From Paracoccaceae bacterium (lineage in GTDB: Bacteria > Pseudomonadota > Alphaproteobacteria > Rhodobacterales > Rhodobacteraceae), in the NCBI GenBank assembly GCA_018223125.1, contig JAAEZA010000043.1, positions 1-37,560 of the forward strand: a stretch of 37,560 nt of DNA, given 5' to 3'. Below, piece after piece: positions 27,210 to 37,560 of the stretch. The position numbers and the translations under genes are program-made. Numbering within the stretch: the first letter of the stretch is position 1; each line of letters opens with the position of its first letter. The notes below the pieces were generated by a model, which had not been told where the DNA came from, did not search any database, and worked only from the letters and a program-made list of their open reading frames with translations.

Positions 27210-28355
27210 TCAGGCGATAAAGCCTGTACGCTCCAGCACCCAGTAAGCAGCCATGATTGCGATGGCGGCGGAGGCGGGAACGACGATGCGGCTGTGATAC
27301 CACGGCTTGTTGCGGAACCATATGCCAACCGCGAGGAAGCAGATGGCGATCACGGCAAGCTGGCCGATTTCCACACCGATGTTAAAGGCGATCAGCGCGG
27401 GTATGAACTGTGCCGTTGGCAGGCCGAAGTCGCCCAGCACAGATGCAAAGCCGAGCCCGTGCAGCAGACCGAAACCGAAAATCAGGAAGGGCCGCCATGC
27501 GGTAAGTTTTTCGGTGAAGATGTTTTCCACCGCGACAAAGACGATAGAGGCGGCGATCAGCGGTTCAACAATCGAGCCTGGCACATTCACATATCCGAGC
27601 GCGCCGAGCGCCAGCGTGATCGTATGGGCCAGCGTGAACATGGTGACCTGCATCAGCAGCGGGCGCAGGTGGGCCGAGAGCAGGAACAGGCCGATCACAA
27701 ACAGGATATGGTCGAGTCCCTTGGGGATGATGTGGTCGAAACCCGCCACGATATAATCCCAAAAGACCTCTCCGGTAGTTTGCGGGGCGATGTTGTCGAG
27801 ATCCACGGAGGCTGTCGCACCGCTTGCCACGTAATCCGCGATCACAGGATCCACAGTATCAGGCAGGAAGACCCGCAGCACGCTGTCCCCGTAGTCTGAC
27901 GGGAAGTTCCATGTCAGCGTGCCGGATGCAGCGGGAAGCGTTGCGCTGTAAGTCAGGGTCGAGACGCGGGCAATTTCAGGATCCCCGACCGGAGGAATGG
28001 AGTGGTCCTGATAGCGGAGCTCTACCGGCGTTCCGTCAAGGAAAAGTCCGAGTGTCGGGTCGAACACGGGTCGCATTTCTGCAAAGGCCTGAGAGAGTTC
28101 GGCAGGCGCGGTTTCCCGCAGGCGGAGATATTCTTTCTCTCCTTCTTCATCGTTTTCGGTATTGGTTTCGTCTGCCACACCCGCAACCAGTGCTTCGAGG
28201 TTCGTGTCGATCGATAGTGTCAACTCGGTGCCGTTCAAAGCCATGTTGATGATGGAAGGCGTGGCTTCATGGGCGCGCAAGGGCGAGAGCGAAATAATAA
28301 ATGCGGCAAGCGTGGCTAAGAGAAGCATCGCGCTATATGATTTGTGAAAGGTCAT
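27210..28355 (-). CDS. HupE/UreJ-family membrane protein
   Basis: This 381-residue membrane protein is of the HupE/UreJ_2 group, whose better-known relatives carry nickel into the cell. I start it at the ATG at 28355, which begins a signal peptide ending SLSPLRA before HEATPS; the frame runs open to 28436 but would then overlap the divergent gene. A soluble region of about 190 residues follows, then the HupE core beginning AGFDHIIPKGLDHILFVIGL, with several helices and VFVAVENIF. The mature protein would begin with His, as reported for HupE proteins. The metal and direction of transport are inferred. The ribosome-binding site is not obvious. Confidence 0.8.
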   Translation of the reverse strand: MTFHKSYSAMLLLATLAAFIISLSPLRAHEATPSIINMALNGTELTLSIDTNLEALVAGVADETNTENDEEGEKEYLRLRETAPAELSQAFAEMRPVFDPTLGLFLDGTPVELRYQDHSIPPVGDPEIARVSTLTYSATLPAASGTLTWNFPSDYGDSVLRVFLPDTVDPVIADYVASGATASVDLDNIAPQTTGEVFWDYIVAGFDHIIPKGLDHILFVIGLFLLSAHLRPLLMQVTMFTLAHTITLALGALGYVNVPGSIVEPLIAASIVFVAVENIFTEKLTAWRPFLIFGFGLLHGLGFASVLGDFGLPTAQFIPALIAFNIGVEIGQLAVIAICFLAVGIWFRNKPWYHSRIVVPASAAIAIMAAYWVLERTGFIA

Positions 28356-28362
28356 GAGGGGA
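28356..28362 (+). promoter_or_regulatory. Ribosome-binding site deciding the DUF4198 start
   Basis: GAGGGGA lies 8 nt before the ATG at 28371 and sets that start rather than the in-frame ATG at 28344. It also fills half of the 15-nt gap to the divergent HupE-like start, so no promoter fits between the two genes. Confidence 0.6.
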
Positions 28363-28370
28363 TTTCTGCT

Positions 28371-29159
28371 ATGAATTGGTTGAAGGCGTGTTTCGTATCT
28401 ATGGCATTTGGATTGTCGGGTCCATTGCTGGCGCATGAATACTGGATCGAGCCGCTGGATTTTACCGTGGCACCGGACGGGCGGATGATGGCCTTTCTCA
28501 AGGTGGGGTCCGAGTTAAAAGGGTCCACATTTCCCTACATTCCAGCGCAGTTTCAGTCTTTTACTATTACGAACAGTAAGGGCACTTTGGATCACAATGG
28601 AATTGTCGGGGATAGCCCGGCCTTGCAAGTGGCAGAGCCTGTGGCGGGTTTGAATATCCTTGCCTATCATTCGAACGCGAACCGTCTGACCTATCGTGAT
28701 CCCGATCTGCTGGAGAAATACCTACTGGCCGAGGGTCTTGATTTTGTGCTTGAGGCGCACCGTGAAAACGGTTGGCCGGAGATCGACATCACCGAAACAT
28801 ACACCCGCAATGCAAAGGCGCTTGTGCAGGTTGGACCCTATGACGGGGGTGAAGATCAGGCGCTGGGCCTGCCGTTCGAGTTGGTCGTTGAAGGCTCGCC
28901 CTATGCGCCGGATACGGAACGGGTGCGGGTGCAACTGCTCTGGCAGGGGGCGCCGGTGTCGGATTATCCGATTAATGTGTTTATCAAAGAGGCCGAAGTG
29001 ACGACCGCACGGGTCCACACCGATCAGGCCGGTTTTGCCGAAGTGGATGTACCTGAAAGCGGTTTCGTCCTGCTGAACTCTGTTCACATCGCACGGCCCG
29101 AGTCCAAAGACGGGCCGTTTTACGAAAGTTTCTGGGCCTCTATGACGTTTGGGCGCTGA
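28371..29159 (+). CDS. DUF4198 periplasmic protein (COG5266-type, metal-uptake associated)
   Basis: This 262-residue secreted protein has a signal peptide (residues 1-21, ending SGPLLA) and a mature start of HEYWIEPLDF, the HE/D-F/Y-W-x-EP opening typical of DUF4198. The family is often listed as the periplasmic part of cobalt or nickel uptake systems, though direct biochemistry is scarce. It appears to be two beta-rich domains; the second begins around ALGLPFELVVEGSPY and ends in an Ig-like strand pattern. It is divergent from the HupE-like gene with only 15 nt between start codons, and its stop codon directly abuts the GlsB stop on the other strand. Confidence 0.82.
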   Translation: MNWLKACFVSMAFGLSGPLLAHEYWIEPLDFTVAPDGRMMAFLKVGSELKGSTFPYIPAQFQSFTITNSKGTLDHNGIVGDSPALQVAEPVAGLNILAYHSNANRLTYRDPDLLEKYLLAEGLDFVLEAHRENGWPEIDITETYTRNAKALVQVGPYDGGEDQALGLPFELVVEGSPYAPDTERVRVQLLWQGAPVSDYPINVFIKEAEVTTARVHTDQAGFAEVDVPESGFVLLNSVHIARPESKDGPFYESFWASMTFGR

Positions 29160-29517: not shown

Positions 29518-30870
29518 TCAGGTCATCTGGTCCATTGGTGCGCTGAAGCTCCATCGCAATCCATCTGCTGCGAAATCGTGACGTGTCTCTCCCGAAGTGG
29601 TGCCCTCCAGTAAGAGCCCCGTTACCTGCGAGCCAAAGCCTGTGCGCGTTGGTGGCGAAACAAGGGGGCCGCCGGATTCAAGCCAGCAGATTTTCAGGGT
29701 AGGGGTGTCATCTCCGGTGATTTCCCAAGTCAGATCGACTTTGCCACTTTCCTGTGAAAGGGCGCCATACTTTGCAGCGTTTGTGGCCAGTTCGAAGATT
29801 GCCATACCCACAGCTTGTGAGACGGATTCATTAAGGTGCACTGTGGGCCCTGCGATATTTACCTGCGCATCGGACACGTCGACAAGATGGGTTAACTGGG
29901 CCCGCGCCAATGCATCAAGATCTACATGAATGCTACCGCTGTTCAGCAGAACATCCTGATTGGAAGCCAGACTGCGTAGCCGGTTGGAGAAGATAGCAAG
30001 AAAAGCATCCCCCTGATAGCGCCTGGCGGTCTGTCGTGCGATCACTTCTACAATGGTCAGAAGGTTCTTTGAGCGGTGGTTGATCTCGTGCAGAAGGGTC
30101 TTGATGCGATCTTCGGATTCCTTTCGCTTGGCTATGTCGCTGTACATGGTGACGAAACCGGTGTGGGACTGGTTTTCGTCCCTGATGGCCGCAAAACTCC
30201 TCTCTACATGAAGGGCACGGCCGTCTTTATGAAGCCGGACGGATTCGCTGCGTAGAACCTCTCCGGCGATCACATCGGGCACTTTGATTTCGAGTTCGTC
30301 CAGTTCATCTTGCGGAACAAGAAGGTGATCGAACCTCCGGCCCATTACTTCATCTTTGGAATAACCGAAAAGCCGTTCGGCGGCAGGGTTCCACGCGTGG
30401 ATTTTAAACGACTTGTCCGACGAGACTATGGCGTGTGGCGAGGATTCCACGAGAATCCGGAACTCGTCGCTTTCACGTCTCCGTTGTACCAGTTCCCGTT
30501 CGAACGACTGGCGTTGTTCGTTTTTGAAAATGCAGAAATATGCTTCGGTCATCTGTCCGTCAGGTCGGACTGCACGACCGTTTACGTAAACACCGAACCG
30601 GCTGCCGTCACGCCGGAGAAGTTCCAGCGAAACCTCCGCGAATTCTCCTTCATAAAAAAGGATCGGGCGGAGGTGGGTTTCAAAAAAAATCCGGCTTGCG
30701 GGTGTCAGTATGTCGACCAGACGGATCTTTGTGTCAGGCGCGCCGTCATCCTGCTTTAACCAGTCCCGCAGTGCGGCATTGGTTTTGGTAATCACACCGT
30801 CCGCATCAATCACCAGTAGGCCACAGGGCCAGAGATCCAGATCGGGCAGGGACCGGAATTCCGCGTTCAT
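29518..30870 (-). CDS. PAS-PAS-HWE sensor histidine kinase
   Basis: This 450-residue kinase is probably cytosolic, since no membrane segment is visible. A first PAS domain covers about residues 10-115 (LWPCGLLVIDADGVITKTNAAL). A second PAS/PAC spans about 135-250 (SPHAIVSSDKSFKIHAWNPAAERLFGY). The HWE dimerisation domain has HEINHRSKN with the phospho-acceptor His261. The ATP-binding domain shows the N-box ELATNAAKYGALS (about 359-371) and the W-L-E motif at 396-398. HWE kinases in alphaproteobacteria often feed PhyR and the general stress response. The gene overlaps the RsbQ-like hydrolase gene by 4 nt (30867-30870), so the first PAS domain may read the product of that hydrolase. Confidence 0.93.
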   Translation of the reverse strand: MNAEFRSLPDLDLWPCGLLVIDADGVITKTNAALRDWLKQDDGAPDTKIRLVDILTPASRIFFETHLRPILFYEGEFAEVSLELLRRDGSRFGVYVNGRAVRPDGQMTEAYFCIFKNEQRQSFERELVQRRRESDEFRILVESSPHAIVSSDKSFKIHAWNPAAERLFGYSKDEVMGRRFDHLLVPQDELDELEIKVPDVIAGEVLRSESVRLHKDGRALHVERSFAAIRDENQSHTGFVTMYSDIAKRKESEDRIKTLLHEINHRSKNLLTIVEVIARQTARRYQGDAFLAIFSNRLRSLASNQDVLLNSGSIHVDLDALARAQLTHLVDVSDAQVNIAGPTVHLNESVSQAVGMAIFELATNAAKYGALSQESGKVDLTWEITGDDTPTLKICWLESGGPLVSPPTRTGFGSQVTGLLLEGTTSGETRHDFAADGLRWSFSAPMDQMT

Positions 30871-31673
30871 TTCTGCGGGGCCGGATGCAGGAAAGCAGAG
30901 ATCGCAGCGACTGTCTGTTCGGGAAAGCTCATATGCGGGCAGTGGCCTGTCGCATCCAGCAGTACCTGCTTGCCCCGCTTGAGGTTTTCGTCAAACCACG
31001 CGCGCACTGTGTCAGGCACTAGGATGTCATCGCGGCACTGAATCACAAGGGTTGGCTGGGCCATTTTCCTGACGTCTTCACGATGGTCGCTCAGAAACGT
31101 CACTCTGGCAAAATGTTTTGCAATGTCAGGATCTGTCTGGCAGAAGCTGGCGGTCAGTTTCTCTCCGAGCGCGGGACGGTCGGGCGTGCCCATGATCGCA
31201 GGGGCCATATCGGCGGCCCAGCCGAGATAATTGACTTCGAGAATGTCGAGCAGGCCAAGCAGGTCACTTTCCTCAAACCCGCCTGTGTAACCGTCCTCGT
31301 TCATATAGCTCGGGGACGGGCAGACCATGACGGTTTTTGCGATCAGGTCCGGACGGCTGTTTGCGGCCAGAGCAACAGTCATTGCGCTGACGGAATGACC
31401 CACAGCAATTACATCGACCAGATCCAGTTCGTCCAGAATGTCGATCAGATCCTCTGCATGACCGTCGAGCGTGGAATAGCGGGCGCGGTCGTAATGCTCT
31501 ATTTCAGACCGGCCATAGCCCATCAGATCGTAGGTTATGACTTTGAAACGTGTTTCGAATTCGGGTGTCACCTTGTGCCACATGCTGCTGTCACATCCGT
31601 AGCCGTGGAGGAAAACAAGGGCAGTCTCGCCCGTACCGGCCATTTTGACCGCACAGTTTTCAATTTTGGACAT
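30867..31673 (-). CDS. RsbQ-like alpha/beta hydrolase
   Basis: This 268-residue alpha/beta hydrolase matches the length of Bacillus subtilis RsbQ (269). The nucleophile Ser94 is in VGHSVSA, the acid is Asp216 in QCRDDILVP, and the base is His244 in GHCPHMS. Stretches such as GGFEESDLLGLLDILE, NYLGWA and FLSDHRED closely resemble RsbQ as I recall it. RsbQ works with the PAS domain of RsbP to signal energy stress, probably by making or delivering a small ligand. The ATG at 31673 is chosen for its GGGAGGAAAGGG site; an in-frame ATG at 31700 lacks one. The overlapping PAS-HWE kinase gene is the likely partner. Confidence 0.92.
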   Translation of the reverse strand: MSKIENCAVKMAGTGETALVFLHGYGCDSSMWHKVTPEFETRFKVITYDLMGYGRSEIEHYDRARYSTLDGHAEDLIDILDELDLVDVIAVGHSVSAMTVALAANSRPDLIAKTVMVCPSPSYMNEDGYTGGFEESDLLGLLDILEVNYLGWAADMAPAIMGTPDRPALGEKLTASFCQTDPDIAKHFARVTFLSDHREDVRKMAQPTLVIQCRDDILVPDTVRAWFDENLKRGKQVLLDATGHCPHMSFPEQTVAAISAFLHPAPQK

Positions 31674-31780
31674 CCCTTTCCTCCCGATACACACGTCCAT
31701 GGCTTAGGTCACTTATGGTTCCGCCGGTAATGCGATAGCAGACGGCACAGATAAAAGTCTGTCAAGCCTGTCCCAATGCC

Positions 31781-31908: not shown

Positions 31909-32778
31909 TTAACGGTTCAGAAGTCTCCAGAATTCCAGCGCCGGACCGCGTAAAGTGTCCGGTTCCTGCTTGATCTTTCGCAGTTCGCGCTGGCTGAGCG
32001 AGCCGGAGGGGACGAAGAATTCCACCCCGTCGGGTTGGTTGCGCACGGCGTCAAAAGGCAGGATGCTGGCACCAAACCCGCGCCTGACGAAAGAGAGAAT
32101 GGCTGTGGTGTTGCGCGCCTCCAGCACGCTGGCCACGCCAAGCGCATCTACGGTTTCATCTTCCACCAGTTCGCACAGGGGGTTCAGGATCAGCGGTTCA
32201 AGGCGCAGCAATCCCCAGTCCGAAGGCCCTGCGGCATCCAGATGGGCACGATGGATCGCCCCGCCCGCAGCACAGACAATTCCCAGATCGTCTGAAAAAA
32301 TGCGTTCGCCCTCCAGCGGATCACCCGGCCTTGCTGATACGATCCCGATGTCGGCCTCGTCGCGGTGAAGGCGGGCGCGCACCGCTGCACTATCCACATC
32401 ACTGATTTCGATTCGGACATTAGGGCGTGCTTTGCGAAAGGCATCAATGACATCGGGCAGCAGCGCCACCGTGGCGGAAGGAACCGCGGCAATCCTGACG
32501 ATTCCCGCAGTAGAAAGCGTATGACGGCGGATCGCATCAACGCTTTTGTCAAAAGCCTCAATGGCGCGGTGGGCTTCTTCCAGCACCAGTTGGCCAAGTG
32601 GTGTAAGGCGGCTCTTGCGATCGGTTTCAAACAGGGGCGCGCCGACCTCCTGTTCGAACTGGGCCAGCGTCATGGAAATCGCCGGAGCGGTGCGCCCCAG
32701 CAACATTGCGGCACCTGACAGTGTGCCTTGGGCGGCAACAGTTGCAAAAGTGCGGAGCATCTCCAGTTTTACGGACAT
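31909..32778 (-). CDS. LysR-type transcriptional regulator
   Basis: This 289-residue regulator has an N-terminal winged helix-turn-helix (residues 1-60: TFATVAAQGTLSGAAMLLGRTAPAIS) and a C-terminal two-lobed ligand-binding domain. It is divergent from the aldehyde dehydrogenase operon across 90 nt. This gap holds two LysR-type T-N11-A palindromes, one of which overlaps this gene's own start codon. The usual arrangement suggests that it activates the ALDH-M19-BCCT genes in response to a substrate or intermediate and represses itself. The inducer is unknown. Confidence 0.93.
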   Translation of the reverse strand: MSVKLEMLRTFATVAAQGTLSGAAMLLGRTAPAISMTLAQFEQEVGAPLFETDRKSRLTPLGQLVLEEAHRAIEAFDKSVDAIRRHTLSTAGIVRIAAVPSATVALLPDVIDAFRKARPNVRIEISDVDSAAVRARLHRDEADIGIVSARPGDPLEGERIFSDDLGIVCAAGGAIHRAHLDAAGPSDWGLLRLEPLILNPLCELVEDETVDALGVASVLEARNTTAILSFVRRGFGASILPFDAVRNQPDGVEFFVPSGSLSQRELRKIKQEPDTLRGPALEFWRLLNR

Positions 32779-32793
32779 TCAATTTTCCTGAAT
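32777..32793. promoter_or_regulatory. LysR-type operator, site 1
   Basis: ATTCA-N7-TGAAT is a perfect 5-bp-arm palindrome containing the T-N11-A LysR motif (T at 32779, A at 32791). It overlaps the LysR start codon (32776-32778), which fits autorepression. Confidence 0.55.
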
Positions 32794-32806: not shown

Positions 32807-32823
32807 ATTCATAGTGACTGAAA
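32807..32823. promoter_or_regulatory. LysR-type operator, site 2
   Basis: ATTCA-N7-TGAAA repeats site 1 with a single change and keeps T-N11-A (T at 32809, A at 32821). Its centre is exactly 30 bp from site 1, about three helical turns, so a tetramer could bind both on one face of the DNA. Confidence 0.55.
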
Positions 32824-32868: not shown

Positions 32869-34320
32869 GTGACCAATCGCACGCAACTTTACATCGACGG
32901 CTTGTGGACAGACGGTGCCAGCCAGATCGAAAACCGCAACCCGTCCGACACTTCGGACCTTATCGGCATGTATGCACAGGCGGATTCGGGGCAGCTTGAC
33001 ACGGCGCTGGCTGCGGCCCGACGTGCCCAGCCTGTCTGGTGGGCTGCCGGTATCCAGAAGCGTCACGATGTGCTGATGGCGATCGGCACCGAGTTGATGG
33101 CCCGCGCCGGAGAAATCGGCCGGATGTTGTCCCGCGAGGAAGGCAAGCCGCTGGCCGAGGGCAAGGGAGAGGTTTACCGCGCCGGACAGTTCTTTACCTA
33201 TTTCGCCGCTGAATGTCTGCGCCAGCATGGCGATCTGGCCGAAAGCGTGCGTCCGGGGATCGAAATTGATGTGCGCCGCGAAGCGGTGGGCGTGGTGGCG
33301 ATCATCTCGCCCTGGAACTTTCCGGTGGCGACACCTGCGTGGAAAATTGCCCCTGCGCTGGCTTTCGGGAATGCGATTGTGTGGAAACCGGCGAATGTGA
33401 CACCGGCAAGTGCCATCGCCCTGACCGAAATCATCGCCCGTCAGGACATCCCGAAGGGTCTTTTCAACCTTGTGGCCGGACCGGGGCGTGACGTGGGGCA
33501 GCGTCTGGTAGACAGCGGGCAGGTCGATGCGATCAGCTTCACCGGCTCGGTTCCCGTGGGCCGTGGCATTGCCGCTGCCGCCGTGCAGAACATGACCAAG
33601 GTGCAGATGGAGATGGGATCCAAGAACCCGCTGATCGTGATGGATGATGCGGATCTGGATCTGGCGGTGGCCCATGCAGCAGGATCGGCGTTTGGCGGGA
33701 CTGGGCAGAAATGCACGGCGGCCAGCCGTCTGATCGTACACAGCAACCTGCACGATGCGTTTGTCGAGAAACTGGTCGCAGCAGCACAGGCGCTGAAAGT
33801 GGGTCACGCGCTGGAAGAGGGCACGCAAATCGGCCCTGCTGTCAGCGAAAGCCAGTTGAGCCAGAACCTCGATTATATCGAAACCGGCAAGGGTGAAGGC
33901 GCAGAACTGCTCTGTGGTGGAGAGCGTCTGGAACTGGCGAGCGAAGGTTTCTATCAAGCGCCTGCGGTCTTTGCGAACACGCGCAATGACATGCGGATCA
34001 ACCGCGAGGAAATGTTTGCCCCGATCACGGCCGTGCAGAAGGTAGACAGCTACGAAGAGGCGCTGTCGGTTGCCAATGACAGCCCGTTCGGCCTGACCGC
34101 CGGTATCATGACAACTTCACTGGCCCGTGCCAGCCATTTCCGCGCCAACATGCGGGCGGGCACTGTGATGGTGAACCTGCCCACAGCGGGCACGGATTAC
34201 CACGTACCCTTCGGGGGCCGCGGTGCGTCAAGCTTTGGTCCGCGTGAACAGGGCTCTTATGCGGCGGAATTCTACACCACTGTTAAAACGGCTTATGTCT
34301 CGGCAGGAGAACCGGCGTGA
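32869..34320 (+). CDS. NAD(P)-dependent aldehyde dehydrogenase
   Basis: This 483-residue aldehyde dehydrogenase oxidises an aldehyde to a carboxylate. Visible are SPWNFP (147-152), KPAN (173-176), FTGSVPVG, the general base Glu248 in QMEMGSKNP and the nucleophile Cys282 in GTGQKCTAASR. The pattern resembles the alpha-ketoglutaric-semialdehyde and related semialdehyde dehydrogenases, but the substrate is open. I choose the GTG at 32869 because AAAGAGGA (32854-32861) sits 7 nt upstream; this sequence would be coding if the ATG at 32845 were used. The stop overlaps the GTG of the M19-like gene (GTGA), so the products are probably made together. Confidence 0.92.
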   Translation: MTNRTQLYIDGLWTDGASQIENRNPSDTSDLIGMYAQADSGQLDTALAAARRAQPVWWAAGIQKRHDVLMAIGTELMARAGEIGRMLSREEGKPLAEGKGEVYRAGQFFTYFAAECLRQHGDLAESVRPGIEIDVRREAVGVVAIISPWNFPVATPAWKIAPALAFGNAIVWKPANVTPASAIALTEIIARQDIPKGLFNLVAGPGRDVGQRLVDSGQVDAISFTGSVPVGRGIAAAAVQNMTKVQMEMGSKNPLIVMDDADLDLAVAHAAGSAFGGTGQKCTAASRLIVHSNLHDAFVEKLVAAAQALKVGHALEEGTQIGPAVSESQLSQNLDYIETGKGEGAELLCGGERLELASEGFYQAPAVFANTRNDMRINREEMFAPITAVQKVDSYEEALSVANDSPFGLTAGIMTTSLARASHFRANMRAGTVMVNLPTAGTDYHVPFGGRGASSFGPREQGSYAAEFYTTVKTAYVSAGEPA

Positions 34321-35303
34321 CCTATCTGGTTGACGGTCTGCAATATGCCAACTGGTCGGAAAAGATCTTCCGCCAGATGCGTGCGGGGGGCGTGGATGCT
34401 GTCCACGTCACCATCACCTATCACGAGACATTCCGCGAAACGGTTCTGGTGATCGAGCAGTGGAACCGGTGGTTCGAGCAGTTTCCCGACCTGATCTTTC
34501 AGGGTCGTACCGCTGACGATATACGCCGCGCCCGTGAAACCGGACGCACGGCGATCTTTTTCGGATCGCAGAATCCGTCCTGTATCGAGGACGATATCGG
34601 GTTGGTCGAGGTGATGCACACGCTCGGGCTGCGATTCATGCAACTGACGTATAACAACCAGTCGCTGCTGGCTTCGGGCTGTTACGAGGACGATGACACC
34701 GGCCTGACCCGTATGGGCCGTCAGGTGGTGGCCGAGATGAACCGTGTCGGGATGGTGGTAGACATGAGCCATTCGGGCGATCGCTCTACCTTTGAGGCGA
34801 TTGAACATTCTACCCGCCCCATCACCATCAGCCATGCCAATCCATCCAGCTGGCATCCTGCGCTGCGCAACAAATCCGATGACCTGCTGCGCGCGCTGGG
34901 CGAAAGCGGCGGATTTCTGGGGCTGTCGATCTATCCCCACCACCTGAAGGACGGGGGCCGGTGCACGCTTCAGTCGTGGTGCGATATGGCTGCGCGCGCC
35001 GTTGATCTGGTTGGGGCAGGACAGGTCGGGATCGGCTCGGATCTGTGTCAGGACCAGCCTGACAGCATTGTCGAATGGATGCGGGTCGGGCGCTGGACCA
35101 AGGCCATGGATTATGGCGAAGGCAGTGCCGATAACGCCGGTTTCCCGCCAATGCCCCACTGGTTCCACGACAACCGCGATCTGGCGGGAATTCGCGCCGG
35201 TCTGCTGGCCGCAGGGCTGGATGAGTCCACGACAGAGGGTGTTATGGGCGACAACTGGTTCGCATTTTTCGAACAGGGCTTCGGGGCACAATCCGTCCCT
35301 TAA
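34317..35303 (+). CDS. M19 (membrane dipeptidase)-like protein with an incomplete metal site
   Basis: This 328-residue protein belongs to the renal-dipeptidase (peptidase M19) amidohydrolase-fold family. Aligned by eye to human renal dipeptidase, His198, His219 and Asp288 are kept (His152 in DMSHSG, His173 in ISHANP, Asp242 in GSDLC). The DGHND metal motif, however, reads DGLQY (Leu8, Tyr10), and the bridging Glu125 is Gln85 (GSQNP). The beta-metal site should therefore be lost, leaving at most one metal. Ordinary dipeptidase activity is doubtful; a different hydrolase, lyase or binding role is likely. It has no signal peptide. It starts with GTG inside the ALDH stop, and the BCCT gene follows 54 nt later. 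Confidence 0.88.
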   Translation: MTYLVDGLQYANWSEKIFRQMRAGGVDAVHVTITYHETFRETVLVIEQWNRWFEQFPDLIFQGRTADDIRRARETGRTAIFFGSQNPSCIEDDIGLVEVMHTLGLRFMQLTYNNQSLLASGCYEDDDTGLTRMGRQVVAEMNRVGMVVDMSHSGDRSTFEAIEHSTRPITISHANPSSWHPALRNKSDDLLRALGESGGFLGLSIYPHHLKDGGRCTLQSWCDMAARAVDLVGAGQVGIGSDLCQDQPDSIVEWMRVGRWTKAMDYGEGSADNAGFPPMPHWFHDNRDLAGIRAGLLAAGLDESTTEGVMGDNWFAFFEQGFGAQSVP

Positions 35304-35357
35304 GACATTCAACGCGTGGCTGGCAGGCCATGTGCCATCGCTTTGTGGAGGTCTAAG

Positions 35358-36923
35358 ATGAGCGATACCAACAGGATAACCGGCCAGACGGGCGGCCGTA
35401 CAGACAAGGCACTTTTTGCCGTAAGCGGGGGCTTTATCGCGCTGTTTTGCGCCTATGCTTTTCTGGACATCGAAGGTTTGTCTGCGCTGGTGGACAGTGC
35501 GTTTGCCTTCTCGGCCAAGTATTTCGGTCTGTACTGGCAGATCCTTTTGCTGGCGACCTTTCTGATCGGCCTGCTGCTCTGCGTGTTGCCCGGATCAAAG
35601 ACCGTAATGGGCGGGCTGTCCCTGCCGGAGTTCAGCAGCTTCAGCTGGGGCTCCATGATCATGTGTACCCTGCTTGCGGGGGGCGGCGTTTTTTGGGCGG
35701 CAGGAGAGCCGGTTGCACATTTCCTGTCTACACCGCCAGTTTTCGGTGATCTGAGCGGCAACACAGAGGCGCGGGCCGATGCTGCTCTGGCGCAGAGCTT
35801 TCTGCACTGGGGCTTTCTGGCTTGGGCGATCCTCGGGTCGCTGACCACGGTGATGCTGATGCACTACCACTATGACAAAGGTTTGCCGCTGGCACCGCGC
35901 ACCCTGCTTTATCCGGTGTTCAAAGAGCGTGCCCTGCACGGGCCGGTCGGCCTGATTGCGGATGCGTCCTGTGTGATCGCCGTTGTGGCGGGCACGGTCG
36001 GGCCTATCGGCTTTCTGGGGCTGCAACTGTCCTACGGTCTGAACGAACTGGCCGGCATTCCGGATACCTTTGCAACCCAATCCATTGCCATTCTGTCGCT
36101 GGTCGCAATCTATACCGTGTCTGCAATCACCGGCCTTGCCAAAGGCATCAAACTGCTGTCGCAGATCAATGTTGTGCTTGCTGTGATCCTTCTGGTGTTC
36201 ATGCTGGTTGCGGGTCCGACCACAGAAATTTTCGCCGGCTTCTTTGGCGGTATGCAGGTTTATCTGACCCATTTCTTCGATCTGACCCTTTATCGCGGGG
36301 ATGCGGGTCTGTTTGGCGATGCAGGCTGGCTCGGCTGGTGGACCGTGTTCTTCTGGGGCTGGTTCATGGGCTATGGTCCGCTGATGGCGATCTTTATCGC
36401 CCGTATCAGCCGTGGTCGCTCTATCCGCCAGATTATCCTGACCCTGTCTGTCATGGCACCGCTGATCACCAACTTCTGGTTCACGATTATCGGCGGCTCC
36501 GGCATCTTCTTTGAAATCGCGGAGCCCGGTGTGATCTCCGGCCCGTTTGAAGGCTTTAACCTGCCGGCCGGACTGCTGGCGATCACTCAGGCAATGCCCA
36601 TGGGGATGATCCTGTCGGTTCTGTTTCTGGTGCTAACCATGTGTTTCGTCGCCACCACCAGCGATTCCATGAGTTATGTCATCTCGACCACCATGACGGA
36701 CGGCGAACCCTCTTGCGCGATGCGCGCCTTTTGGGGGCTGGCGATGGGGGTGATGGCGCTGATCCTGATCTCTACCGGCGCAGGAGGTATCGGCAAGCTG
36801 CAAAGTTTCATCGTTGTGACGGCTGTGCCGGTGTCGCTTCTGCTGCTACCCTCCTTGTGGGACGCATTGCGGATCACGTGGATGTTGGGCCGCAAACCGC
36901 AGGCCGCTGCCGCGCGGGCCTGA
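35358..36923 (+). CDS. BCCT-family transporter with atypical substrate-site residues
   Basis: This 521-residue secondary transporter of the betaine/carnitine/choline family has a dozen or so hydrophobic segments. The TM8 signature reads WWTVFFWGWFMGYGP followed by FIARISRGRS, the hallmark of BCCT. Compared with BetP, Trp373 is kept (Trp335), but Trp374 is Phe336 and Trp377 is Tyr339. The unwound TM3 segment, usually GMGIG, is LLAGG (residues 105-109) before VFWAAGEP. The substrate is probably a methylated ammonium or sulfonium compound, but not necessarily betaine. I use the ATG at 35358, with GTGGAGG just upstream. A strong hairpin follows the stop. Confidence 0.92.
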   Translation: MSDTNRITGQTGGRTDKALFAVSGGFIALFCAYAFLDIEGLSALVDSAFAFSAKYFGLYWQILLLATFLIGLLLCVLPGSKTVMGGLSLPEFSSFSWGSMIMCTLLAGGGVFWAAGEPVAHFLSTPPVFGDLSGNTEARADAALAQSFLHWGFLAWAILGSLTTVMLMHYHYDKGLPLAPRTLLYPVFKERALHGPVGLIADASCVIAVVAGTVGPIGFLGLQLSYGLNELAGIPDTFATQSIAILSLVAIYTVSAITGLAKGIKLLSQINVVLAVILLVFMLVAGPTTEIFAGFFGGMQVYLTHFFDLTLYRGDAGLFGDAGWLGWWTVFFWGWFMGYGPLMAIFIARISRGRSIRQIILTLSVMAPLITNFWFTIIGGSGIFFEIAEPGVISGPFEGFNLPAGLLAITQAMPMGMILSVLFLVLTMCFVATTSDSMSYVISTTMTDGEPSCAMRAFWGLAMGVMALILISTGAGGIGKLQSFIVVTAVPVSLLLLPSLWDALRITWMLGRKPQAAAARA

Positions 36924-36930
36924 TGTAACC

Positions 36931-36956
36931 GGTATGGCGCAGGCTGGCGCCATACC
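36931..36956 (+). terminator. Strong intercistronic stem-loop after BCCT gene
   Basis: GGTATGGCGC-AGGCTG-GCGCCATACC is a perfect 10-bp stem with a 6-nt loop, starting 7 nt after the BCCT stop. It is followed by TTCACC, not a U-run, so it may stabilise or trim the transcript or cause partial termination before the next gene rather than stop it fully. Confidence 0.5.
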
Positions 36957-36989
36957 TTCACCGAATACAGGACTGAAGGGAACACAGTG

Positions 36990-37560
36990 ATGTCCGTAAA
37001 TCCGTCGATCACCCCGCCAAAGGCCGCCCGTTACATGCGTCCCGCCGCAGAAGTGATGCGTCTTGCACGGATGGGGTGTGGACATCCGACACGGCTGTCG
37101 TTCCTGCGGGTGATGTTGCGCCGGTTGGAGCGTTCAGACTGGCAGGTCGACCGTCCGGTCTGGAAAGTGGATGCAAATGGTGTCGGCCATGCAATCTACC
37201 GCGTCCGCAGTGCAGAGCGCAGTTACAGCCTTTTGGCATTTGCCCATGATCTGCCGCCCGAGCAGCGGTCCGACAGGGTCATCGCTACCGCTTGGGATGC
37301 GACCTTCACCCTGTTTGACGGAGAGCCCGACGCGGATGATATCGCCCGGCTGGCACAAAACGTTCCCTATCAGGAAGCCGGACGGATCACCGCAAAAGAG
37401 TTGACGCTTGCCCGTGCCAACCGCTCCGTGCGCCTGTTCAACCATGTGGTCGAATCCCTGTCCGAAGGGCGCCAGCCCGATGCGGAAGAAATCCGCGCGG
37501 TCGGTTATCTGATGCGCACCACAGCGGTTTACGGCTCTGGTAAATTCGGCGCGTCGGACC
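36990..37560 (+). CDS. Unrecognised protein, N-terminal part (runs off the window)
   Basis: A frame stays open from the ATG at 36990 to the window end (190 codons) with no stop. GAAGGGA (36974-36980) precedes the ATG by 9 nt. I do not recognise the family. The visible part is soluble and rich in Arg, Ala and Leu, with no signal peptide or membrane helix. It opens with a helical segment (AARYMRPAAEVMRLARMG), then alternating strands (YRVRSAERSYSLLAFAHD), an acidic stretch (FDGEPDADDIARLA) and further helices. Codon use matches the neighbours. Position and strand suggest that it belongs to the ALDH-M19-BCCT operon, so it may be an enzyme acting on the imported compound. No function is claimed. 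Confidence 0.75.
   Translation, partial: MSVNPSITPPKAARYMRPAAEVMRLARMGCGHPTRLSFLRVMLRRLERSDWQVDRPVWKVDANGVGHAIYRVRSAERSYSLLAFAHDLPPEQRSDRVIATAWDATFTLFDGEPDADDIARLAQNVPYQEAGRITAKELTLARANRSVRLFNHVVESLSEGRQPDAEEIRAVGYLMRTTAVYGSGKFGASD

What the first reader, a model, noticed from the sequence alone, without database searches (positions are those of the whole stretch)
32869..37560. Possible undescribed uptake and catabolic unit: ALDH, degenerate M19 protein, atypical BCCT carrier, unknown protein
Four co-directional genes follow a divergent LysR regulator with paired operators. The importer family handles quaternary ammonium or sulfonium compounds, the dehydrogenase would oxidise an aldehyde from their breakdown, and two members (M19-like and the last gene) do not fit known betaine, carnitine, choline or DMSP pathways as I know them. 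An M19-type protein is also found near glycine-betaine catabolic genes in Pseudomonas, which makes a link to methylated amines reasonable. The actual substrate is unknown.
Basis: partly seen in the sequence, partly recalled or inferred. Interest (0 to 1): 0.7.

Follow-up and report, generated by a model that had tools for sequence, protein, structure and literature searches.

The report
Likely homarine-degradation operon, cut short
Four marine-bacterial genes form the front part of a widespread operon that probably imports and breaks down homarine, an algal compound, using a pair of proteins of unknown type.

Summary
A LysR gene diverges from ALDH, an M19 protein, a BCCT carrier and an unknown gene, which is cut by the contig end (37560). 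The M19 protein lacks expected metal ligands; two operator-like sites exist. Relatives continue with DUF3726 and often an Ldh_2 reductase or a RidA protein. The most constant part is M19–unknown–DUF3726; the carrier varies.

Best reading: the homarine (N-methylpicolinate) catabolic operon. Some Ldh-type relatives carry it beside genes of an N-methylglutamate-dehydrogenase (Mgd) class enzyme; a SAR116 relative has mgsABC nearby. A paper seen in passages cites a 2026 report that Mgd takes part in homarine catabolism. That report was not held, so gene identity is inferred.

Seen here: Ldh and RidA are nearly mutually exclusive (both in 1 of 69 distinct loci), suggesting two fates of one N-methyl imine/enamine. 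The unknown protein is predicted with confidence, yet no solved structure matches. DUF3726 resembles Ldh_2 dehydrogenases. No oxygenase family was recognised, so this pair may open the ring. Against: the window's operon could not be completed, the core often occurs without ALDH, and half the RidA-type genomes counted lack both Mgd and Mgs.

The parts
31909..32778 (-). LysR-type regulator, divergent from the operon (HomR candidate)
   Evidence: Pfam HTH_1 and LysR_substrate; the L173 (Neptunicoccus sediminis) gene at the same place matches it at 89%
32778..32792 (.). operator-like site TTCA-N7-TGAA, proximal to LysR
   Evidence: at least one exact copy in 45 of 66 distinct intergenic regions
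32808..32822 (.). second operator-like site, 30 bp from the first
   Evidence: two exact copies in 3 of 66 regions
32869..34320 (+). aldehyde dehydrogenase; proposed oxidation of the ring-opened semialdehyde
   Evidence: Pfam Aldedh 521 bits; highest NCBIfam scores on 2-oxoglutarate-semialdehyde dehydrogenase models, below their cut-offs
34317..35303 (+). M19-family protein lacking expected metal ligands; proposed deformylase or other hydrolase
   Evidence: Pfam Peptidase_M19 242 bits; invariant replacements in 163 of 163 aligned rows
35358..36923 (+). BCCT importer, proposed for homarine
   Evidence: Pfam BCCT 479 bits; box WGWFMGYGP; best solved relatives carry trimethylamine, choline, DMSP (DddT) and glycine betaine
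36990..37559 (+). first 190 codons of the gene for an unknown protein (558 aa in L173), cut by the contig end; a GTG lies one codon upstream at 36987
   Evidence: 85% identical to residues 1-190 of the L173 protein; no Pfam or NCBIfam family (and full-length relatives)

Best explanation
The window holds the front of a homarine (N-methylpicolinate) catabolic operon: a BCCT importer, ALDH, M19 and the unknown protein, continued in the closest relative by DUF3726 and RidA. Inferred chemistry, modelled on trigonelline breakdown as I recall it: the unknown protein, with its Ldh-like partner DUF3726, opens the pyridinium ring between C5 and C6. This gives an N-methyl-N-formyl C5 semialdehyde. ALDH oxidises the aldehyde. 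The altered M19 protein removes the formyl group. The resulting N-methyl imine/enamine of 2-oxoglutarate is then either reduced by Ldh to N-methylglutamate, which Mgd turns into glutamate, or hydrolysed by RidA to 2-oxoglutarate and methylamine, which the mgs/gmaS/mgd-like genes of this genome could use. Shown: gene content, conservation, Ldh/RidA exclusion, Mgd and Mgs linkage in relatives, the two model-and-fold results. Inferred: the substrate (about 0.65), each enzyme's step (about 0.3-0.4 each), regulation by LysR.
For: 1) Mgd link. In Ruegeria TM1040, Phaeobacter inhibens, Aliiroseovarius and Shinella the cluster lies beside a multi-subunit 'sarcosine oxidase'. The TM1040 beta subunit is 79% identical to the one on contig C35 of the window's genome, which lies beside mgsA-, mgsB-, mgsC- and gmaS-like genes. 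That class (72% or more to C35) has MgsC within 20 kb in 19 of 63 rows; the next class (63-69%) in 0 of 87 listed rows. 2) Of 185 loci tabulated, 8 (7 genomes; L079 and L223 are the same) have that class within 12 kb; all 8 are Ldh-type, none RidA-type. 3) Among ALDH-type loci with 6 kb on both sides, the genome has the Mgd-class gene in 13 of 18 with Ldh and 3 of 13 without (Fisher 0.011; without the flank rule 15 of 20 and 4 of 16). 4) A SAR116 relative carries mgsABC 6 kb downstream. 5) Ldh and RidA: both 1, Ldh only 29, RidA only 23, neither 16, of 69 distinct ALDH-type loci. 6) The TM1040 Ldh is closest to delta1-piperideine-2-carboxylate reductase (1wtj, 4.8e-53, next 2e-38), whose relative DpkA also makes N-methyl amino acids (PMC8070496, passages). 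7) Carriers of ALDH-type loci: BCCT type 1 in 10 of 31 and 18 of 42, type 2 in 6 and 8, betaine ABC permease in 3 and 6, types 1 and 2 together in 0 and 1, none of these in 12 and 9. 8) Rhodobacterales and SAR116 by record title. 9) PMC13390433 says Mgd takes part in homarine catabolism (passages).
Against: The homarine paper is not held, so no gene was matched to a published hom gene; operon name, composition and taxa are recalled. The rest of the unknown gene, DUF3726 and the L173 RidA region were not found in the own genome (the L173 carrier as control was found at 89% DNA identity), so the window's operon stays incomplete; its only Ldh hit with the TM1040 query is 43% identical on another contig. 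Of 8 RidA-type family loci with full flanks, 4 lie in genomes with neither Mgd-class nor MgsC hit, which does not fit methylamine recycling. The core occurs without an ALDH of 60% identity within 7 kb in 40 of 71 loci with full flanks, and distant forms stand beside IclR, aminotransferase and semialdehyde-dehydrogenase genes, so it may serve other substrates. 16 of 69 ALDH-type loci have neither Ldh nor RidA nearby. Fisher tests ignore relatedness. The preference for a C5 aldehyde rests on NCBIfam scores below cut-off; among solved structures a phenylacetaldehyde dehydrogenase is best and a putative hydroxymuconic-semialdehyde dehydrogenase is close.
Confidence: 0.62

Rival explanations
1. The unit degrades another N-methylated zwitterion (trigonelline, an N-methylated proline betaine or similar) whose breakdown also ends in an N-methyl imine or N-methyl amino acid, feeding the same Mgd or methylamine route.
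For: The carriers at the site are of general betaine type; some clusters lie beside MttB, FAD-dependent (dimethylglycine-oxidase-like) and Rieske genes; the core has distant forms in other settings.
Against: Mgd-class linkage and presence in Rhodobacterales and SAR116 fit the cited report and what I recall of it; MttB and Rieske genes are found in only a few of the loci compared.
Confidence: 0.22
2. Homarine is opened by water rather than by oxygen: C6 becomes the aldehyde, ALDH makes 2-(methylamino)muconate, and RidA acts as a 2-aminomuconate-deaminase-like enzyme releasing methylamine; Ldh reduces the same C6 enamine.
For: RidA in 24 of 69 distinct ALDH-type loci; no oxygenase family recognised among the proteins scanned; 2-aminomuconate deaminases are RidA-like (recalled); a putative hydroxymuconic-semialdehyde dehydrogenase is among the closest solved ALDHs.
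Against: The ALDH scores higher on 2-oxoglutarate-semialdehyde models (490, 486 bits) than on hydroxymuconate-semialdehyde models (385, 319 bits), all below cut-off; Mgd-class genes beside Ldh-type clusters point to N-methylglutamate, a C5 product.
Confidence: 0.1
3. The four genes are a chance neighbourhood of an orphan importer and unrelated enzymes.
For: BCCT type 1 is present in only 10 of 71 and 19 of 49 loci with 6 kb on both sides.
Against: M19 accompanies the unknown gene in 65 of 71 and 46 of 49, DUF3726 in 57 of 71 and 48 of 49; wherever BCCT type 1 is present in these loci, ALDH and M19 are too (10 of 10, 19 of 19); fusions of the unknown protein with DUF3726; ALDH and M19 overlap by 4 bp.
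Confidence: 0.03

Closest known systems
Homarine catabolic operon, homABCDER (Ferrer-Gonzalez et al. 2026, Nat Microbiol 11:1531; seen only as a reference; operon name recalled)
   Same: Mgd link (PMC13390433, passages); five enzyme genes plus a LysR gene in Ldh-type relatives; Rhodobacterales and SAR116
   Different: Not comparable gene by gene here; the closest relative of the window has RidA and no Ldh within the 10 kb fetched, and the window's copy is cut off
Trigonelline degradation (tgn genes of Acinetobacter; recalled)
   Same: Same kind of N-methylpyridinium carboxylate; an aldehyde dehydrogenase and a deformylating hydrolase needed in both (recalled)
   Different: No flavin monooxygenase recognised in the core; M19, the unknown protein and DUF3726 are not tgn-type as I recall them
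N-methylglutamate pathway (mgsABC, gmaS, mgdABCD; gene make-up recalled)
   Same: Such genes on contig C35 of this genome; Mgd-class genes beside some Ldh-type clusters
   Different: Handles methylamine; here proposed as the lower pathway, not part of the window
Glycine-betaine catabolic cluster of Pseudomonas with M19 protein PA5396 (recalled)
   Same: M19 protein most like 2i5g
   Different: No betaine demethylase gene in this unit

Membership tests
Homarine catabolic operon | Linked to or co-occurring with N-methylglutamate dehydrogenase | tested here: met
   linkage in some relatives; Mgd-class gene in 19 of 36 genomes with an ALDH-type cluster, 44 of 162 without; the own genome has it on C35, not beside the cluster; 2 of 8 RidA-type loci only
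Homarine catabolic operon | Found in Rhodobacterales, SAR116 and SAR11 (taxa recalled) | tested here: inconclusive
   Rhodobacterales and SAR116 by record title; unnamed 1.2-1.4 Mb genomes with 28-36% GC at the locus may be SAR11 or alike: two have only M19, unknown and DUF3726, two also ALDH, Ldh and a betaine ABC importer
Homarine catabolic operon | Same genes as published homA-E and homR | not testable with these tools
   paper not held
Homarine catabolic operon | Homarine supports growth and induces the genes | not testable with these tools
   needs culture
Betaine, choline, carnitine catabolic pathways | Betaine-aldehyde dehydrogenase | tested here: not met
   TIGR01804 406 bits, cut-off 669; PRK13252 378, cut-off 593
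Glycine-betaine, choline or carnitine BCCT carriers | NCBIfam model cut-off | tested here: not met
   NF047988 294 of 650, NF007399 226 of 695, NF002887 195 of 541
BCCT carriers | Pfam BCCT over full length | tested here: met
   478.9 bits, residues 19-505
Active binuclear-zinc M19 dipeptidases | HxD and bridging Glu ligands (recalled from renal dipeptidase) | tested here: not met
   invariant Q9-Y10 and Q85 in 163 of 163 aligned rows; the Glu position is read from the printed alignment to 3id7, the HxD position from memory and by eye
Ldh_2 dehydrogenases (for DUF3726) | Whole Ldh_2 fold at convincing similarity | tested here: inconclusive
   the first 24 Foldseek hits are all enzymes I know as Ldh_2, at TM 0.34-0.42 of a 241-aa query and E 1.8e-3 or worse; sequence link weak

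The most novel reading that the evidence does not exclude
The unknown protein and DUF3726 form a new class of ring-opening enzyme for N-methylpyridinium acids: a fold with no solved relative, working with a shortened Ldh_2-like partner. The operon has two interchangeable endings, Ldh (N-methylglutamate, Mgd) or RidA (methylamine), exchanged more than once.
Probability: 0.35. Interest if true: 0.75.

Novelty: new member of a known kind. Interest (0 to 1): 0.52.

Why it matters
Homarine is an osmolyte of diatoms that Ruegeria pomeroyi drew down with a mean lifetime of 2 hours or less (PMC12817926, passages). A homologue of the unknown gene is in 91 of 198 genomes of the window's family, its own included, and in 53 of 385 of its class. 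If the unknown pair opens the ring, that is an enzyme class with no solved fold. The Ldh/RidA choice would decide whether the nitrogen goes into glutamate directly or is set free as methylamine.

Tried and rejected
Rejected: a chance neighbourhood; betaine-aldehyde-dehydrogenase or known-substrate BCCT membership by model cut-off. Considered and not excluded: another N-methylated substrate, and the C6 (muconate) route.

Led nowhere: literature searches (DUF3726 gave 0 papers); sequence and fold searches of the unknown protein; a mixed alignment of fused and separate proteins (A2), dropped because the DUF3726 rows apparently aligned to the wrong region (judged from its printed consensus, not checked further); the remainder of the operon in the own genome; passages on homarine in PMC9723723 and PMC9038784 named no genes for it.

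Rows dropped before counts: loci with less than 6 kb on either side of the unknown gene, and L054, which gave no usable hit; also 4 duplicates of 73 (identical 400-base stretch of the unknown gene). In one search M19 hits of 50% identity or less were left out. In one search the lower-identity class was taken only as far as the answer printed it (87 rows). The family set and the named set share some genomes.

Mended on re-check: the M19 count includes the window twice; L079 and L223 are one genome; counts without a flank rule are now given beside those with it; the start of the last gene is set at 36990; the positive control for the own-genome DNA search was added.
Full report
Observation. The window is contig C68 of its genome, complete at 37560 bases. 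At its right end a LysR gene (31909-32778, -) diverges from ALDH (32869-34320), an M19 protein (34317-35303), a BCCT carrier (35358-36923) and an unknown gene that is open at the contig end (36990-37559). Pfam supports the four named families; the unknown protein has no Pfam or NCBIfam family, also at full length from relatives. A very close named relative is Neptunicoccus sediminis CY02 (L173): ALDH 96%, BCCT 95%, M19 93%, LysR 89% identical, the highest values among the 80 named loci compared.

M19 and BCCT. An alignment of 163 M19 rows (160 distinct sequences, the window twice) shows Q9, Y10, Q85 and Y112 invariant where, by comparison with solved dipeptidases and from memory, HxD, the bridging Glu and a substrate His are expected; two His, an Arg and an Asp are invariant too. 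It is a conserved altered subfamily, not a decayed gene. The one M19 hit that I looked at among those left out for low identity (L142) differs at the first place (L-E-C) but also lacks His there. The carrier has a box WGWFMGYGP; of 64 carrier rows 44 have this kind, 18 have WAWWIAFSPF, 2 neither. Its best solved relatives are carriers for trimethylamine, choline, DMSP (DddT) and glycine betaine.

Operators. TTCA-N7-TGAA occurs at 32778-32792 and 32808-32822; the window holds 3 copies against 0.58 expected, and 3 of 100 shuffles reach 3. In 66 distinct divergent LysR-enzyme regions, 45 hold at least one exact copy close to the LysR start, 3 hold two; mononucleotide shuffles give 0.17 on average.

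The larger unit. A homologue of the unknown gene is found in 91 of 198 genomes of the family, 53 of 385 of the class and 168 plasmid records. I fetched the surroundings of 94 family places and 80 named loci (the best 80 of 582, so biased towards the query). Within 7 kb, where at least 6 kb lies on both sides, M19 accompanies it in 65 of 71 and 46 of 49, DUF3726 in 57 of 71 and 48 of 49, ALDH in 31 of 71 and 42 of 49, BCCT type 1 in 10 and 19, BCCT type 2 in 6 and 9, betaine ABC permease in 4 and 6. All four genes of the finding occur together in 10 of 71 and 19 of 49. The two sets share some genomes. In some members the unknown protein and DUF3726 are one polypeptide (L034, L161, L167, L187). 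So the four genes are the front of a longer operon whose most constant part is M19-unknown-DUF3726.

The lost end. In the own genome the L173 unknown protein matches only the piece at the contig end (residues 1-190); DUF3726 of TM1040 and of L173 and 2.2 kb of L173 DNA over the rest of the gene, DUF3726 and RidA found nothing, while L173 carrier DNA was found at 89% identity. The end most likely fell into an assembly gap; it could also be missing.

Two endings. In ALDH-type loci an Ldh_2 reductase or a RidA protein is often present, almost never both: of 69 distinct loci, both 1 (L170), Ldh only 29, RidA only 23, neither 16 (Fisher 6e-7, not corrected for relatedness). RidA lies about 0.6-0.8 kb downstream on the same strand (1.8 kb in L170), mostly 57-86% identical to that of L173 (38% in L187), or 3.6-5.3 kb upstream on the other strand at 38-42%, which suggests more than one recruitment. 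The TM1040 Ldh is closest to delta1-piperideine-2-carboxylate reductase (1wtj); the relative DpkA reduces that cyclic imine and as a side activity performs reductive methylamination of 2-oxo acids (PMC8070496, passages). Ldh and RidA thus look like two ways to resolve one N-methyl imine or enamine. L173 has RidA.

Link to N-methylglutamate. Next to some Ldh-type clusters stands a multi-subunit enzyme annotated as sarcosine oxidase. The TM1040 beta subunit is 79% identical to the one on contig C35 of the window's genome and 47% to the copy on C49. On C35 the subunit genes are followed by an HTH-cupin regulator, a glutamine amidotransferase, a GXGXG protein, a glutamate-synthase-domain protein and a type III glutamine synthetase, the make-up of mgsABC-gmaS as I know it. 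In the family, this class has MgsC within 20 kb in 19 of 63 rows, the next class in 0 of 87 listed rows. Of 185 loci tabulated, 8 (7 genomes) have the class within 12 kb, all Ldh-type. Among ALDH-type family loci with full flanks, the genome holds it in 13 of 18 with Ldh and 3 of 13 without. Of 8 RidA-type loci 2 have it, 4 have MgsC, 4 have neither. In a named SAR116 record (L189) mgsABC lies 6 kb downstream of the cluster; in L140, a distant form with ALDH only 31% identical nearby, about 3 kb away. PurU stands beside the Shinella cluster and is found in L174.

Why homarine. PMC13390433 (passages only) states that a recent report has Mgd take part in homarine catabolism and cites Ferrer-Gonzalez et al. 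2026. That paper is not held. From memory its operon is called homABCDER, occurs in Rhodobacterales, SAR11 and SAR116, and yields N-methylglutamate and glutamate; five enzymes and a LysR gene match the Ldh-type clusters in number. SAR116 is confirmed by record title (L189, L209).

The unknown pair. AlphaFold gives the L173 unknown protein pLDDT 89.0 and pTM 0.91, but Foldseek finds nothing below E 0.5 among solved chains and nothing below 0.08 among viral models; no library of cellular models was at hand. DUF3726 (pLDDT 89.5) has as its first 24 hits enzymes that I know as Ldh_2 (best E 1.8e-3, TM about 0.4); sequence support is weak. No oxygenase family was recognised among the proteins scanned, so ring opening most likely falls to this pair.

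Mechanism. The favoured order is in Best explanation. ALDH scores best on 2-oxoglutarate-semialdehyde dehydrogenase models (490 and 486 bits) and lower on hydroxymuconate-semialdehyde ones (385, 319), which favours a C5 over a C6 aldehyde. All are below cut-off, and the solved relatives do not show this preference, so this is a hint.

Against. No gene was matched to the published operon. 40 of 71 family loci with full flanks have no ALDH of 60% identity within 7 kb. Half the RidA-type genomes counted lack both Mgd-class and MgsC hits. Distant forms sit in other settings.

Verdict. A real, widespread unit, most likely the homarine operon; a new member of a known kind, with an unexplained protein pair and a swap of its last step that I have not seen described. 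My literature searches did not ask for that swap by name, and the key paper could not be read.

Noticed in passing
window 29518-31700 (-): An alpha/beta hydrolase most like RsbQ (1wom, E 1.1e-80) and plant KAI2/D14 receptors overlaps a PAS-HWE histidine kinase gene: possibly a small-molecule receptor-kinase pair like RsbQ-RsbP.
   Followed up: partly
L130, L124, L084: More distant or ALDH-less M19-unknown pairs lie near acyl-CoA dehydrogenase, phosphotransferase and genes that look like the beta-hydroxyaspartate cycle (judged by eye from translations).
   Followed up: no
L143:8941-12387, L146:8953-12355: In Sinorhizobium meliloti and Alloyangia a distant unknown protein, a second hypothetical and M19 stand with an IclR regulator and an ABC importer; aminotransferase and semialdehyde-dehydrogenase genes are close by. 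A sister system with another substrate?
   Followed up: no
L144:6032-14282: The haloarchaeon Natrinema versiforme carries the unknown gene with a hypothetical, a BCCT carrier and an ALDH on a plasmid.
   Followed up: no
L046:7844-8299: A transposase-like ORF (by eye) stands directly before the Mgd-class genes of the window's genome.
   Followed up: no
window 27210-29159: A HupE/UreJ-looking protein (by eye) overlaps, head to head, the start of a DUF4198 protein; possibly a metal-uptake pair.
   Followed up: no
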